A stretch of DNA of 20,921 bases from a virus, in the IMG/VR virus record IMGVR_UViG_3300027965_000019, positions 1 to 20,921 of that record. One strand, 5' to 3'. A model generated the notes under the pieces. The model was not told where the DNA came from and made no database searches. It saw only the letters and a program-made list of their open reading frames with translations. How positions within the stretch are numbered: position 1 is the first letter of the stretch; every line of letters begins with the position of its first letter. Position numbers and translations under genes: made by a program. Positions 48-6,517 of this stretch are shown piece by piece.

Positions 48-144
48 GGGGGTGCTCCTGTCGTGGACCTTGGTCGGCCACAGGGAGTACCCCTTTCATT
101 GCCTGACACACATATCCTTACGTCACCTGCACAGCGGATTTCGC

Positions 145-173
145 TTGACAAATCCGGATCGATGTGGTATAAG
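145..173 (+). promoter_or_regulatory. Sigma70-type promoter upstream of toxin gene
   Basis: TTGACA at 145-150 and TATAAG at 168-173 are separated by 17 bases, a near-consensus sigma70 promoter. The expected start site is about 180. The spacer contains the palindrome ATCCGGAT, also present in the second copy, which may be an operator. A terminator hairpin begins only about 11 bases after the predicted start site, so unaided transcription should yield an RNA of roughly 40 bases. Confidence 0.7.
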
Positions 174-190
174 TTTCGCACAATCGAAAT

Positions 191-220
191 CCCGGCGGTC
201 GCGGACCAGCCGGGTTTTTT
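191..220 (+). terminator. Rho-independent terminator next to promoter
   Basis: CCCGGC (191-196) and GGTC (197-200) pair with GACC (204-207) and GCCGGG (209-214), with a GCG loop and one bulged A at 208. Six T residues follow at 215-220. The hairpin lies between the promoter at 145-173 and the toxin gene at 286. It would block expression of that gene unless read through, or it could end a tiny RNA. Confidence 0.75.
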
Positions 221-285
221 GTTGCCGCAGCGATCATGCGGCGTCTACTCGCCTTCGCCGATCTTCGCTTCCGGAGCGCTCGTCC

Positions 286-1293
286 ATGACCGCGATGACC
301 TTGTTCACGCTGCGCAACAGGTGCATGCGGAAAGGTGCGAGCTTGCTGGGCCTCTCCTGCGACGAGGACGGCCTCCATTTTGGCGACTGCGCGCTCGTCC
401 GGGCGGCGAGAGATACGAAGGGCCGACGCGTCTACGAGCCGCGCGCCCTTGGCGAGATCAATGCCGTCCTCTCCGCTGCCTATGGCCGCGAGGTCGAGTT
501 CGCCAGTCGCATGCCCGGTTTGCGCCGGGTGTCGCAGCATCTCTCCGAGGGCAAGCTGGCGCTGGCGCAGTTCACGGCGCTTCATCTGCGCTTGCCGGAG
601 CTGCCGGACGAGGCCGCGGTAGAGCGCTTGAGCAAGGCGGAGGCGCTGTTGCGCTTCAATCCCAACCATTTCGGTCCAGGCCCGCGGCACGGGCAATTCG
701 CTCCCGCGAGCGAAAGTGAAAACAGCGGTGACGGCAACGCAGCGACCCGCTCCTATCCAGCGCCAGCGGGCAACGGCATCGTTCGCAACTATTCGCCGGA
801 AGAGGCCGCGAAGCTCCCGCCACCGCCACCGGGCAGCAAATATGTCACGCTGAAAGACGGCTCCGTCGTCTGGAGCAGCTTTGCCAATCAACGCAGAGGC
901 GGTCCGATGCTCATGCCCGATGGGGTGTCTTTGGCCGCCAATATCCGCCGGGGCGAAGAGATCTCGGACGAGCACGACGATATCATCGATCAATACAAGG
1001 ACATGTTCGATCTCTTTTACCGTAACCGCTCTATGGACTATCAGCGGATCTATGGCACGGGCGGCAAGATCAATCGGGACTACATTGATTTCGGCAACTA
1101 CAATTATGGCGCCGTCGCGGCGGCTGCCGGACTTTCATGGGTCGAGACCATAGGCGCCGCTGGGTTGATCAATCTCGGTGGCGCGGGTGACAAATCGGGC
1201 CCCCTTCTCAATAACCCGAGAAACCTTGCATTCATCCGACGTGGCTTCGAGGATTATCGCAATGGCAAGATATCGGCGCATCAGAGAAACTGA
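286..1293 (+). CDS. Polymorphic toxin with phage linker and Ntox44-like C-terminus
   Basis: A 335-residue protein in three parts. Residues 1-123 form an N-terminal domain I do not recognise, presumably a docking or delivery domain. Residues 124-140 (FNPNHFGPGPRHGQFAP) match the Phe-Asn-Pro...Gly-Gln-Phe linker found before exchangeable toxin tips in alphaproteobacterial phages. Residues from about 185 resemble bacterial toxin 44 (Ntox44, PF15607), with MDYQR at 250-254, GNYNYG at 270-275 and a Gly/Ala-rich end. That family is predicted to be toxic, possibly as a nuclease; its activity here is inferred. I chose ATG 286 because GGAG lies 10 bases upstream; ATG 295 and ATG 325 are alternatives. 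The 3' end overlaps the next gene by 32 bases, as in toxin-immunity pairs. Base composition becomes less GC-rich toward the 3' end, suggesting a transferred tip. Confidence 0.7.
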   Translation: MTAMTLFTLRNRCMRKGASLLGLSCDEDGLHFGDCALVRAARDTKGRRVYEPRALGEINAVLSAAYGREVEFASRMPGLRRVSQHLSEGKLALAQFTALHLRLPELPDEAAVERLSKAEALLRFNPNHFGPGPRHGQFAPASESENSGDGNAATRSYPAPAGNGIVRNYSPEEAAKLPPPPPGSKYVTLKDGSVVWSSFANQRRGGPMLMPDGVSLAANIRRGEEISDEHDDIIDQYKDMFDLFYRNRSMDYQRIYGTGGKINRDYIDFGNYNYGAVAAAAGLSWVETIGAAGLINLGGAGDKSGPLLNNPRNLAFIRRGFEDYRNGKISAHQRN

Positions 1294-1801
1294 TTTCCTC
1301 GAATTGCTTTGGCTACATCACCCGCTCCTCGTCGGTTATCTCTGGGCAGTTACCGGCGCATCTGTAACGTTTGCCGCCATCATCGTAGCCAGTGCGAGCA
1401 TGGCCGGCTTCGCCAGCGTGGATCCGTTACTTGAGCGCATCTGGGGCAGTGTGCTCACGTTCTTCGTGTGGGCCCAGCTATTCTGGATCTGCGCCCTCCC
1501 CATGGCACTGCCGCCTTTCGCCCTGTCGTGGCAGATAGCGAAGAAATTTGAGATAGGGAGCTTCGTCTACTATGTTCTATGCGGCGCGATGGCCGGCCTT
1601 GTCCTGACGCCAGTCTTCGAGGAACTCGTCGCGCCTGAGGTGCGGCTGAGCGACGATCCCACCTTTCTTCAAGATTGTATCCGCTGGTGGCCCACATTCA
1701 TTCTGTCGGGCACGTGCGGCGCGCTAGCCTTCTGGTATAGAACCGGCCGCCATCTTGGCCGCATCTTGGCGAATATGGCACAACCGCAATCCACGCTCTG
1801 A
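1262..1801 (+). CDS. Four-helix membrane protein, candidate immunity protein
   Basis: A 179-residue integral membrane protein. Hydrophobic segments lie at about 22-48, 61-90, 99-120 and 143-160, with a basic N-terminus (MARYRRIRET) and a short loop rich in acidic residues around 119-132. I do not recognise a named family. ATG 1262 is preferred because GAGG at 1249-1252 gives a 9-base spacing. A longer in-frame version from GTG/ATG codons near 1178 would lie inside the toxin gene and is less likely. The gene starts inside the toxin's 3' end and ends 48 bases before the terminase small subunit. An overlapping membrane protein directly after a polymorphic toxin suggests immunity, but this rests on position, not on homology. 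A holin-like or other phage membrane role is possible. Confidence 0.7.
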   Translation: MARYRRIRETDFLELLWLHHPLLVGYLWAVTGASVTFAAIIVASASMAGFASVDPLLERIWGSVLTFFVWAQLFWICALPMALPPFALSWQIAKKFEIGSFVYYVLCGAMAGLVLTPVFEELVAPEVRLSDDPTFLQDCIRWWPTFILSGTCGALAFWYRTGRHLGRILANMAQPQSTL

Positions 1802-2410: not shown

Positions 2411-2453
2411 TGCAGGTTAGGGCGGATTTTTCGGCTCTTCTGCGATTTTCTCC

Positions 2454-2482
2454 TTGACAAATCCGGATCGATCTGATATATA
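2454..2482 (+). promoter_or_regulatory. Sigma70-type promoter upstream of terL
   Basis: TTGACA at 2454-2459 is followed after 17 bases by TATATA at 2477-2482; the AT-rich stretch continues so TATATT at 2479-2484 is an alternative -10. The spacer shares ATCCGGAT with copy 1 and extends to GATCGATC. The expected start is near 2489, about 15 bases before the terminator stem. Confidence 0.72.
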
Positions 2483-2503
2483 TTTTGCATCATCGAAATT
2501 CTG

Positions 2504-2533
2504 CCCGGCGGTCGCAGACCGGCCGGGTTTTTT
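2504..2533 (+). terminator. Rho-independent terminator upstream of terL
   Basis: CCCGGC (2504-2509) and GGTC (2510-2513) pair with GACC (2517-2520) and GCCGGG (2522-2527), leaving loop GCA and one bulged G at 2521. Six T residues follow at 2528-2533. The terL ribosome binding site GGAGG begins only 7 bases later. The terminator may separate terS from terL transcription or act as an attenuator on the promoter just upstream. Confidence 0.78.
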
Positions 2534-2551
2534 GTTGCCGGAGGCGCGGCG

Positions 2552-4207: not shown

Positions 4208-6199
4208 ATGCCGCAAGGAGGGCAGCAGACGCCGCTATCGCCGAGCCTGGTGCAGCGCGCGGTCGAGGGCATCCGCTATATCATCAGCGGCGTGACGCCA
4301 TCGACCTGGTTCGGCCCCATGCAGCCGCTGGCGCCGATGGCGCCGGCGGCGGTGGCGGGGCGGCAGTTCGACTATCCCGTCGGCTACAACCTGACGGTCA
4401 CGCCGCGCGCCGAGGAGCGGATCAGCTTCGCGCAATTGCGCGCGCTCGCCGATAGCTATGACCTGCTGCGCCTCGTCATCGAGACGCGCAAGGATCAAAT
4501 CGAGCGGCTCGAATGGAGCATCCGCCGGCGCGCGCTGCCGGGCGGCGAGCCCGCCGATCGCGATCACGATCCGCGCATCGCCGCGATCGAGGCTTTCTTC
4601 CGCATGCCGGACCGGGTCCATTTCTGGTCGACTTGGCTCAGGCAGCTTCTCGAAGATCTCTTCGTCGTCGATGCGCCGGCGCTTTACCTGCGCCGCACGC
4701 GCGGCGGGCAGCTCCATGCGCTCGAGCTCATCGACGGCACGACGATCAAGCGCCTCATCAACGCCGATGGCCGCACGCCCGAGCCGCCCGATCCCGCCTA
4801 TCAGCAGGTGCTCCACGGCGTGCCGGCGGCGGATTTCAGCACCGACGAGCTCATTTATCGCCCGCGCAATCTGCGCACCCACCGGCTCTATGGCTACTCG
4901 CCCGTGGAGCAGGTGGTGATGACGGTCAATATCGCGCTGCGCCGCCAGCTCTATCAGTTGAGCTACTACACCGAAGGCAATGTACCGGAGGCGTTGATCG
5001 GCACGCCCGAGAGCTGGTCGCCGACGCAGATCAAGGAGTTCCAGCAATATTGGGACGCGCTGCTCGAAGGCAATCTGGCCCAGCGGCGGCATGCGAAATT
5101 CGTGCCCGGCGGCGTCGCCAAGACCTTCATCCCGACCAAGGAGGTCGAGCTCAAGAGCGCCTATGACGAATGGCTGGCGCGGGTCATCTGCTTCGCCTTC
5201 TCGGTCTCGCCACAGGCCTTCAGCGAGCACATGAACCGCGCCACGGCGGAGACGGCGCAGAGCACGGCCTTGGCGGAGGGTCTGGCGCCGATCCGGAGCT
5301 GGGTGAAGCAGCTCGTCGATTACGTGATCCTCACCGAGTTCGCCGCACCCGACCTCGAATTCGCCTGGCGCGACGAGAGCGCGAGCGATCCCGAGAAGCA
5401 GGCGAGCGTCGCGCAGATCTATGTGACGAACGGCATCAAGACGATCAACGAGACGCGCGCCGAGATCGGGCTCGATCCGGTCGAAGGCGGCGATGCGCCG
5501 CTGATCTTCACCGGCGCGGGGCCGGTGCCGCTCACGGGCATCGGCGCCAAAGCGAGCGCGCCAGCAATCGGCAAGGCGAACTTTGACCCGGGCCAGCTTC
5601 GCGTGCCGAAAGGCAGCCCCGATGCGGGGCAGTGGACAAGCGGCGAGACCGCGAGCAGCATCGGAAATAATACGCTGTTGGTATCGAGCGAAAATGACGC
5701 CCAAGGCTCGTCCGGCGATCGCCGACCCGCGCCAGCCGCAGGCCCTCAGGCCGATCATACCACCGATGCGCAACTATCATTCGAAACTGCGCCCCACCAA
5801 AGAAGTCGAACCGACATCGACCAATTGCAGCGTGTCATTAATGACCCGGCGATCCGCGCTCAGATGCAGGAAGCATGGGCGGCGTCCAACCCAAACGGCC
5901 CAGATCATCAGGAGCACGGATTCTGGATTATTCAAGATCCGAAAACGGGCGCGCTTTCCACGCTACCGTTCGATAACTTTGGTGAACGCGAGACAATGGC
6001 ACCTGGAGCGATCCCGCCGAACACCGTCGCCTTCTTCCATACTCATCCTTCGCCGCTAAACGTCGGTAAGCCCGGTCCCAGTCCCTTGGACTTGAGTTTT
6101 GCCTCGGGACACGGGCTTACGGGGATAATTGGCTCACATGTGGGCATATACTATTATGGCCGCCCGCTCCGGCGGCCAGTGCCGGCGGTGAACCGTTGA
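4208..6199 (+). CDS. Portal protein fused to a JAMM/DUF4329-like peptidase domain
   Basis: A 663-residue protein, about 200 longer than a usual GTA-type portal. Residues 1 to about 450 are the portal, including LRLVIETRKDQIERLEW near 92-108, the stretch LYGYSPVEQVV, and TINETRAEIGLDPVEGGD at the usual C-terminal end. The portal forms the dodecameric DNA channel at one capsid vertex. Residues 456-479 are a linker (GQLRVPKGSP...GQWTSG). After a low-complexity spacer, residues about 560-655 resemble JAMM/DUF4329 metallopeptidases. Glu569, HTH at 611-613, and Ser625-x2-Asp628 fit E...HxH...SxxD, with 11 residues between the second His and the Ser instead of the usual 7 or so. This second half is less GC-rich. 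The likely role is a toxin or processing domain carried on the portal; activity is inferred. Confidence 0.85.
   Translation: MPQGGQQTPLSPSLVQRAVEGIRYIISGVTPSTWFGPMQPLAPMAPAAVAGRQFDYPVGYNLTVTPRAEERISFAQLRALADSYDLLRLVIETRKDQIERLEWSIRRRALPGGEPADRDHDPRIAAIEAFFRMPDRVHFWSTWLRQLLEDLFVVDAPALYLRRTRGGQLHALELIDGTTIKRLINADGRTPEPPDPAYQQVLHGVPAADFSTDELIYRPRNLRTHRLYGYSPVEQVVMTVNIALRRQLYQLSYYTEGNVPEALIGTPESWSPTQIKEFQQYWDALLEGNLAQRRHAKFVPGGVAKTFIPTKEVELKSAYDEWLARVICFAFSVSPQAFSEHMNRATAETAQSTALAEGLAPIRSWVKQLVDYVILTEFAAPDLEFAWRDESASDPEKQASVAQIYVTNGIKTINETRAEIGLDPVEGGDAPLIFTGAGPVPLTGIGAKASAPAIGKANFDPGQLRVPKGSPDAGQWTSGETASSIGNNTLLVSSENDAQGSSGDRRPAPAAGPQADHTTDAQLSFETAPHQRSRTDIDQLQRVINDPAIRAQMQEAWAASNPNGPDHQEHGFWIIQDPKTGALSTLPFDNFGERETMAPGAIPPNTVAFFHTHPSPLNVGKPGPSPLDLSFASGHGLTGIIGSHVGIYYYGRPLRRPVPAVNR
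5570..5607 (+). repeat. Linker repeat inside portal gene, copy 1
   Basis: This 38-base segment encodes the start of the portal-toxin linker (GKANFDPGQLRVP). About 34 of 38 bases match 6744-6781 downstream. The two copies bracket the JAMM domain, the immunity-like gene and a decayed gene, marking the ends of an exchangeable cassette of about 1.2 kb. Confidence 0.8.
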
Positions 6200-6208
6200 A
6201 GAAACCTC

Positions 6209-6517
6209 ATGATTTTATTTCCTACGCTCTCAATCATCATGCTGGTGTGCGGTTCGCTGGCGATCGCTCAAGCTTCCGCGGAGGAACATGCAGCGACGCC
6301 GAGGAAATGCGATATCCTAAAAGTCGCCAACGAGTACAAAGCTGCACACTTTCCGGATGTTCGCAACCCGCCCTACAAAGTGGTGCAACGACGCACGGAG
6401 AACGATGATCTTCGAGAGGTTAGCTACGAGCTACCCCCGAATTTTATCGGCGGAGGCCCTGTCCTGACGATTTCGAAGAGCAAATGTGAGGTCGTACGAG
6501 CGTATGTAACCCAGTAG
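6209..6517 (+). CDS. Secreted small protein, candidate immunity to the portal-linked domain
   Basis: A 102-residue protein beginning 9 bases after the portal stop. A signal peptide is clear: hydrophobic core at about residues 3-20 and an AQASA cleavage site after residue 24. There is no lipobox, so the mature protein of about 78 residues should be soluble in the periplasm. Two cysteines (34 and 93) could form a disulfide. The end, GGGPVLTISKSKCEVVRAYV (81-100), resembles the close of NTF2-fold immunity proteins (a GGGxxxxID-KTGKV-type strand pair). Position directly after a toxin-like domain fits immunity, and the periplasmic location would imply protection against incoming protein. The family match is by eye and tentative. 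Base composition is less GC-rich than the flanking structural genes. Confidence 0.65.
   Translation: MILFPTLSIIMLVCGSLAIAQASAEEHAATPRKCDILKVANEYKAAHFPDVRNPPYKVVQRRTENDDLREVSYELPPNFIGGGPVLTISKSKCEVVRAYVTQ

What the first reader, a model, noticed from the sequence alone, without database searches (positions are those of the whole stretch)
286..1801. Toxin-immunity pair placed in front of the terminase genes
A three-part protein (unknown N-terminal domain, FNPNH...GQFAP linker, Ntox44-like end) overlaps a four-helix membrane protein. The packaging module is an odd place for a free toxin unless it is a virion passenger or a phage-competition factor. A membrane immunity protein suggests the toxin acts on or crosses the inner membrane, or that the toxin is held there.
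Basis: partly seen in the sequence, partly recalled or inferred. Interest (0 to 1): 0.75.

Follow-up and report, generated by a model that had tools for sequence, protein, structure and literature searches.

The report
Phage-borne swappable toxin with immunity gene
The first genes of this phage-type cluster are a toxin and the membrane protein that should protect against it; the toxin has an undescribed front part that carries many different toxin ends in related phages and soil bacteria, and in these same phages the DNA-gateway (portal) protein can also end in a toxin, so the particles may serve as weapons between bacteria.

Summary
286-1293 encodes a three-part 335-aa protein; 1262-1801, overlapping it by 32 nt, encodes a 3-4-helix membrane protein. 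The tip (residues ~161-335) is homologous to Ntox44 (hhalign 94.5%; 50% identical to a protein above the PF15607 cut-off) but falls below that cut-off itself and lacks two of three signature motifs. It is a previously unlisted carrier of polymorphic toxins. The spot in front of the terminases is not special: relatives carry such toxins mostly between the DUF3168-type and major-tail genes. A second pair was missed: the window's portal protein ends, behind a similar linker, in a JAB-like domain followed by a secreted Imm-NTF2-2-like protein. Related portals end in pesticin, M23 or papain-toxin (with Imm35) tips, and one genome has an array of partial portal copies with different tips. Best reading: a particle-associated polymorphic toxin acting on the cell envelope. 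Delivery and toxicity are inferred, not shown.

The parts
286..654 (+). Carrier (N-terminal) domain of the toxin, residues 1-123
   Evidence: Homologous domains in L006/L065 (three copies), L008, L042 (two copies) and 16 of 199 alphaproteobacterial genomes
655..708 (+). Linker FNPNHFGPGPRHGQFAPA, residues 124-141
   Evidence: Counterparts FDPSQPRNDRGRWT, KYSPDQPRDEHGRWT, FDPDEPRDERGRWT at the same place in relatives, and similar linkers in portal proteins
766..1290 (+). Toxin tip, Ntox44-like; core match to PF15607 at about 1078-1257
   Evidence: keeps GNxxxG, has DYQ for DxK and NNPRN for DxxxD
1262..1801 (+). Membrane immunity protein, 179 aa, 3-4 helices, overlaps the toxin gene by 32 nt
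   Evidence: homologue immediately downstream of the homologous tip in L006
144..230 (+). Promoter-like TTGACA..TATAAG followed by a terminator-like hairpin, copy 1, just upstream of the toxin gene
   Evidence: by eye; the automatic scan does not list this promoter
2453..2543 (+). Copy 2 of the same block, between small and large terminase genes
4208..5527 (+). Portal protein core
   Evidence: PF04860 E 1e-19; phrog_2662 E 1.2e-88
5582..5638 (+). Portal linker FDPGQLRVPKGSPDAGQWT
5639..6199 (+). Portal C-terminal tip with a JAB/JAMM-like motif (E, HTHP, SPLD): second toxin candidate
   Evidence: Motif by eye and relatives with other portal tips; no Pfam hit, low-confidence model
6209..6517 (+). 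102-aa protein with signal peptide, Imm-NTF2-2-like: candidate immunity to the portal tip
   Evidence: PF15631 E 0.012, below cut-off; same size and layout as L138, which passes the cut-off; Tox-JAB-2/Imm-NTF2-2 pairing in PMC3482391

Best explanation
The pair is a polymorphic-toxin cassette carried in the late (structural) operon of an alphaproteobacterial tailed phage or GTA-type particle. The toxin is carrier - linker - exchangeable tip; the tip is a divergent Ntox44-like domain that probably attacks the cell envelope (periplasm or inner membrane), and the overlapping membrane gene is its cognate immunity protein, protecting the producing lineage and kin. Because the phages of this group also attach toxin tips, behind a related linker, to the portal protein, the carrier most likely brings its tip into or onto the particle, or releases it with the particles at lysis. 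Shown by sequence: architecture, carrier homology, tip exchange, immunity genes next door, portal fusions. Inferred: toxicity, envelope target, particle delivery, linker as a junction or processing site.
For: Same carrier with different tips in related phages (GH24 lysozyme 3e-38, two unidentified tips with SUKH immunity beside them, another unidentified tip) and in chromosomes (CDI_toxin_EC869_like 2.4e-26, AHH 1.1e-9). Adjacent recognised immunity families: CdiI 6.7e-31, Imm52 4.8e-13, Imm11 8.6e-6, three SUKH-1 genes 2e-15 to 2e-17. Tip plus membrane-gene pair conserved in L006. Orphan Ntox44-like tip with an array of similar membrane-protein genes in the phage of L008. Immunity location follows tip type: membrane or exported for Ntox44 (15/17), not for other tips (1/15). 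Portal-fused tips: pesticin 1.7e-38, M23 3.6e-5 (below cut-off), papain-fold toxin 4.2e-8 followed by Imm35 1e-8. T6SS sheath found in only 3 of 12 carrier genomes, portal genes in 11 of 12.
Against: Chromosomal carriers examined lie beside housekeeping genes (UvrB, EamA), with none of the window's phage genes within about 10 kb, so the carrier is not tied to a particle. No protein evidence for virion incorporation. The tip lacks two of three Ntox44 signature motifs and may have lost or changed activity. No fold match in the PDB; the model is of low confidence. One copy of the pair in L006 has a frame break near the end of the toxin.
Confidence: 0.62

Rival explanations
1. Polymorphic toxin not linked to particles: the carrier is recognised by a host export route, and the phage merely ferries a toxin-immunity gene pair that helps its lysogen compete, like mycobacterial PEST cassettes.
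For: Carrier toxins stand alone in chromosomes beside housekeeping genes with their own immunity genes; prophage toxins with signals for host secretion systems are known (PMC10654092).
Against: The phages concentrate these genes inside the head-tail operon, up to three per phage; portal proteins carry tips behind a similar linker; T6SS sheath not found in 9 of 12 carrier genomes.
Confidence: 0.25
2. Intracellular function: an abortive-infection or superinfection-exclusion pair (toxin-antitoxin-like) that acts in the cell that makes it.
For: Two adjacent overlapping genes; a membrane partner would fit exclusion at the envelope (inference).
Against: The gene sits with the late genes; tips are exchanged on one carrier; neighbouring genes match polymorphic-toxin immunity families; lysozyme and pesticin tips have secreted neighbours, which makes sense against attack from outside.
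Confidence: 0.08
3. Structural or ejection-type phage protein whose variable end is a host-range or genome-entry function, with the membrane gene unrelated.
For: Location next to the structural genes; some tips are cell-wall hydrolases, common in virions.
Against: No match to any PHROG or structural Pfam family; nuclease tips with CdiI, SUKH and Imm52 neighbours are not explained this way; relatives lack the gene at this place.
Confidence: 0.05

Closest known systems
Polymorphic toxin systems (Zhang et al. 2012, PMC3482391)
   Same: Constant N-terminal part, exchangeable C-terminal toxin, adjacent immunity gene, orphan tips and immunity arrays; Ntox44, Tox-JAB-2/Imm-NTF2-2 and papain-like toxins are listed there
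   Different: The carrier domain found here matched no Pfam, PHROGs or NCBIfam model above threshold; no immunity partner is listed there for Ntox44
MuF toxins of temperate phages (Jamet et al. 2017, PMC5576092)
   Same: Polymorphic toxins encoded in the packaging/head module of temperate phages, proposed to travel with the capsid
   Different: No MuF domain; the carrier is a different small domain, found in several slots and also in chromosomes; tips also on the portal itself
Bxa family of Bacteroides prophages (PMC11699363) and PEST cassettes of mycobacterial prophages (PMC10654092)
   Same: Prophage-borne polymorphic toxins with cognate immunity
   Different: Other N-terminal domains and other hosts; PEST toxins bear type VII secretion signals
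Portal fusions to PBECR or 2H domains (Iyer et al. 2017, PMC5512222)
   Same: Portal protein fused to an effector domain
   Different: Here the portal tips vary among close relatives, have neighbouring immunity genes, and in G015 partial portal copies with different tips lie in tandem

Membership tests
Polymorphic toxin system | One N-terminal domain with different C-terminal toxin domains | tested here: met
Polymorphic toxin system | The same tip on different carriers | tested here: met
   The L005 portal tip resembles the L008 carrier tip (by inspection only); lysozyme-type tips on both portal and carrier in the L006 phage
Polymorphic toxin system | Immunity gene directly downstream, from recognised immunity families in relatives | tested here: met
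   CdiI, Imm52, Imm11, SUKH-1, Imm35
Polymorphic toxin system | Orphan tips or immunity arrays | tested here: met
   phage of L008; G015; three SUKH genes in L042
Polymorphic toxin system | Toxicity neutralised by the neighbour gene | not testable with these tools
   Needs expression tests
Ntox44 (PF15607) | Score above the curated cut-off (24 bits) | tested here: not met
   14.6 and 16.4 bits
Ntox44 (PF15607) | GNxxxG motif | tested here: met
   GNYNYG
Ntox44 (PF15607) | DxK and DxxxD motifs | tested here: not met
   DYQ and NNPRN; L114, above the cut-off, has DYQ and NPRN as well
Ntox44 (PF15607) | Homology to members | tested here: met
   50% identity to L114; hhalign 94.5% without L114
MuF toxins | MuF domain (PF04233 or PF06152) | tested here: not met
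   No hit in Pfam or PHROGs
Tox-JAB-2 with Imm-NTF2-2 (second pair) | E, H[ST]H, S, D motif in the toxin | tested here: met
   EHGFW, HTHP, SPLD in the portal tip
Tox-JAB-2 with Imm-NTF2-2 (second pair) | Family profile match for toxin and immunity | tested here: inconclusive
   No DUF4329 hit; PF15631 E 0.012 below cut-off
RcGTA-type gene cluster | Conserved gene order from terminase to the Rcc01698-like tail protein | tested here: inconclusive
   DUF2460, Gp84_N/BR0599, NlpC/P60 (weak), Phage-tail_3 plus Rcc01698_C in that order; no GTA sequence was compared directly, and related free phages may share the order

The most novel reading that the evidence does not exclude
Tailed-phage or GTA-type particles of Alphaproteobacteria are a polymorphic-toxin delivery platform: both a dedicated carrier domain and the portal protein display exchangeable toxin tips with cognate immunity genes, and some genomes keep tandem partial portal copies as a store of alternative tips.
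Probability: 0.42. Interest if true: 0.9.

Novelty: new variant of a known kind. Interest (0 to 1): 0.74.

Why it matters
It adds a carrier domain to the known routes for polymorphic toxins, in phages and chromosomes of Alphaproteobacteria, and shows the portal protein, an essential virion part, being used as a toxin carrier with exchangeable ends. If the tips travel with particles, phage or GTA particles act as weapons as well as gene carriers, and the lysogen's immunity genes explain who survives. It also gives a candidate immunity class (exported or membrane proteins), and so a likely compartment, for Ntox44 toxins, for which the 2012 survey listed no immunity partner.

Tried and rejected
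DUF222 (PF02720, E 0.0049 for residues 66-121) rejected: below cut-off and limited to a short, predicted helical stretch. tblastn of the toxin in 50,697 phage records, and of carrier, tip and membrane protein in 72,556 plasmids: no match. PDB by sequence and by fold: nothing for the tip, canonical Ntox44 or the JAB-like tip. Single-sequence model of the portal tip too poor to judge. The first profile comparison was circular because L114 was in both alignments; repeated without it. A first Fisher test used rough counts; the counts were used. PF15607 search in 299 near relatives and the tip profile in 289 genomes of the class: no hit. Rfam: nothing. T6SS as a general route disfavoured (3 of 12 genomes, several of them drafts).

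Full report
Observation. The window is a 20,921-base IMG/VR contig; a 12.3-kb contig from another record is 100% identical over the regions matched. The two ORFs are as described: toxin 286-1293, membrane protein 1262-1801, 32-nt overlap. Terminase genes, portal, protease, capsid and tail genes follow. The order and the last genes (DUF2460, Gp84_N/BR0599, NlpC/P60, Phage-tail_3 with Rcc01698_C) resemble RcGTA-like phages and gene transfer agents (gene order from general knowledge), so prophage and GTA cannot be told apart here.

The tip. Pfam gives Ntox44 below cut-off. The tip is 50% identical to L114, a protein above the PF15607 cut-off, and a profile of the window tip and its phage relative matches canonical Ntox44 at 94.5% without L114. 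GNxxxG is kept; DxK is DYQ and DxxxD is NNPRN; L114 shares these changes. The motifs are those given for Ntox44 in PMC3482391. I therefore call it Ntox44-like, a sister group, with activity uncertain.

The membrane gene. A 44%-identical homologue lies directly downstream of the homologous tip in L006. The viral scan found it only in these two places, and 299 genomes have none. Around canonical Ntox44 toxins drawn from 399 Pseudomonadota genomes, 15 of 17 downstream genes have a transmembrane or signal segment, one with four; beside carriers with other tips it is 1 of 15 (Fisher 7e-6, not corrected for relatedness, hydropathy only, counted by hand from the tables). The simplest reading is that Ntox44-type tips act in the envelope.

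The carrier. Residues 1-123 have homologues in L006 (three per phage: two with Ntox44-like tips and one with a GH24 lysozyme tip, each followed by a membrane or secreted gene), L008 (another tip), and L042 (two other tips with three SUKH-1 genes between them). Sixteen of 199 relatives of an alphaproteobacterial MAG have it, with CDI-type nuclease and AHH tips and CdiI, Imm52 and Imm11 neighbours. A profile from chromosomal members alone scores the window domain at 98 bits. It matched no Pfam, PHROGs or NCBIfam model above threshold. The chromosomal copies examined stand among host genes.

Position. In L006, L040 and L042 such toxins lie between the DUF3168-type and major-tail genes (in L040 the N-terminal part is only weakly similar); in the phage of L008 that slot holds an orphan Ntox44-like tip (L066:6096-6395, minus strand) and an array of related membrane-protein genes, and its carrier gene lies between portal and protease. 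The window's place in front of the small terminase, behind a promoter-terminator block that recurs before the large terminase, is thus one of several.

The portal. The window's portal has a 205-aa extension starting at the linker FDPGQLRVPKGSPDAGQWT and ending in a JAB-like motif, and the next gene is a secreted Imm-NTF2-2-like protein; that pairing is in the 2012 survey. In its closest relatives the portal ends in a pesticin domain, an M23-like domain, a deaminase-like domain (weak), another tip, or nothing. In G117 the portal ends in papain-fold toxin 1 and is followed by Imm35; in G015 several partial portal copies besides the full one, with visible linkers and different tips on three, lie between large terminase and protease, with an orphan CdiA-CT RNase A cassette among them. 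Portal fusions to effector domains were known (PBECR, 2H); exchange of portal tips with immunity genes was not found in the papers read.

Mechanism. I infer that tips reach the envelope of other cells with or through particles, and that the membrane protein protects kin. The portal fusions argue for particle association; the stand-alone chromosomal carriers argue that the carrier can use another route. T6SS is not general. The literature search covered open-licence PMC papers only.

Noticed in passing
window 144-230 and 2453-2543: A promoter-like TTGACA box with an ATCCGGAT palindrome and a downstream terminator-like hairpin occurs twice, before the toxin and before the large terminase (79% and 93% identical parts); a related TTGACAAATCCGGAT promoter-like sequence stands upstream of the small terminase in L010. 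This recalls late promoters controlled by antitermination.
   Followed up: partly
window 4208-6517: Portal protein with a JAB-like C-terminal tip followed by a secreted Imm-NTF2-2-like protein: a second toxin-immunity candidate in the same cluster.
   Followed up: partly
L151 and L152 (G015:C7): Tandem partial portal copies with the linker KYN.NHDE.GRFST and different tips between large terminase and protease, with an orphan CdiA-CT RNase A domain (L152:6967-7377).
   Followed up: partly
L157:10819-13259 (G117): Portal ending in papain-fold toxin 1 followed by an Imm35 gene.
   Followed up: partly
L095-L121: Genes directly downstream of canonical Ntox44 toxins are nearly always predicted exported or membrane proteins: candidate immunity class for Ntox44.
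   Followed up: partly
L068:8036-8527 (phage of L010): A free GH24-like lysozyme gene overlaps the portal stop codon, at the place where relatives have portal-fused tips.
   Followed up: no
L068:1-1056: Part of an acyl-CoA ligase-like gene lies on the same contig ahead of the packaging genes, so this relative probably sits in a chromosome (prophage or GTA).
   Followed up: no
L006:7912-9072: The first Ntox44-like carrier toxin of this phage has a frame break near its end, while a second copy (L065:10390-11565) is open.
   Followed up: partly
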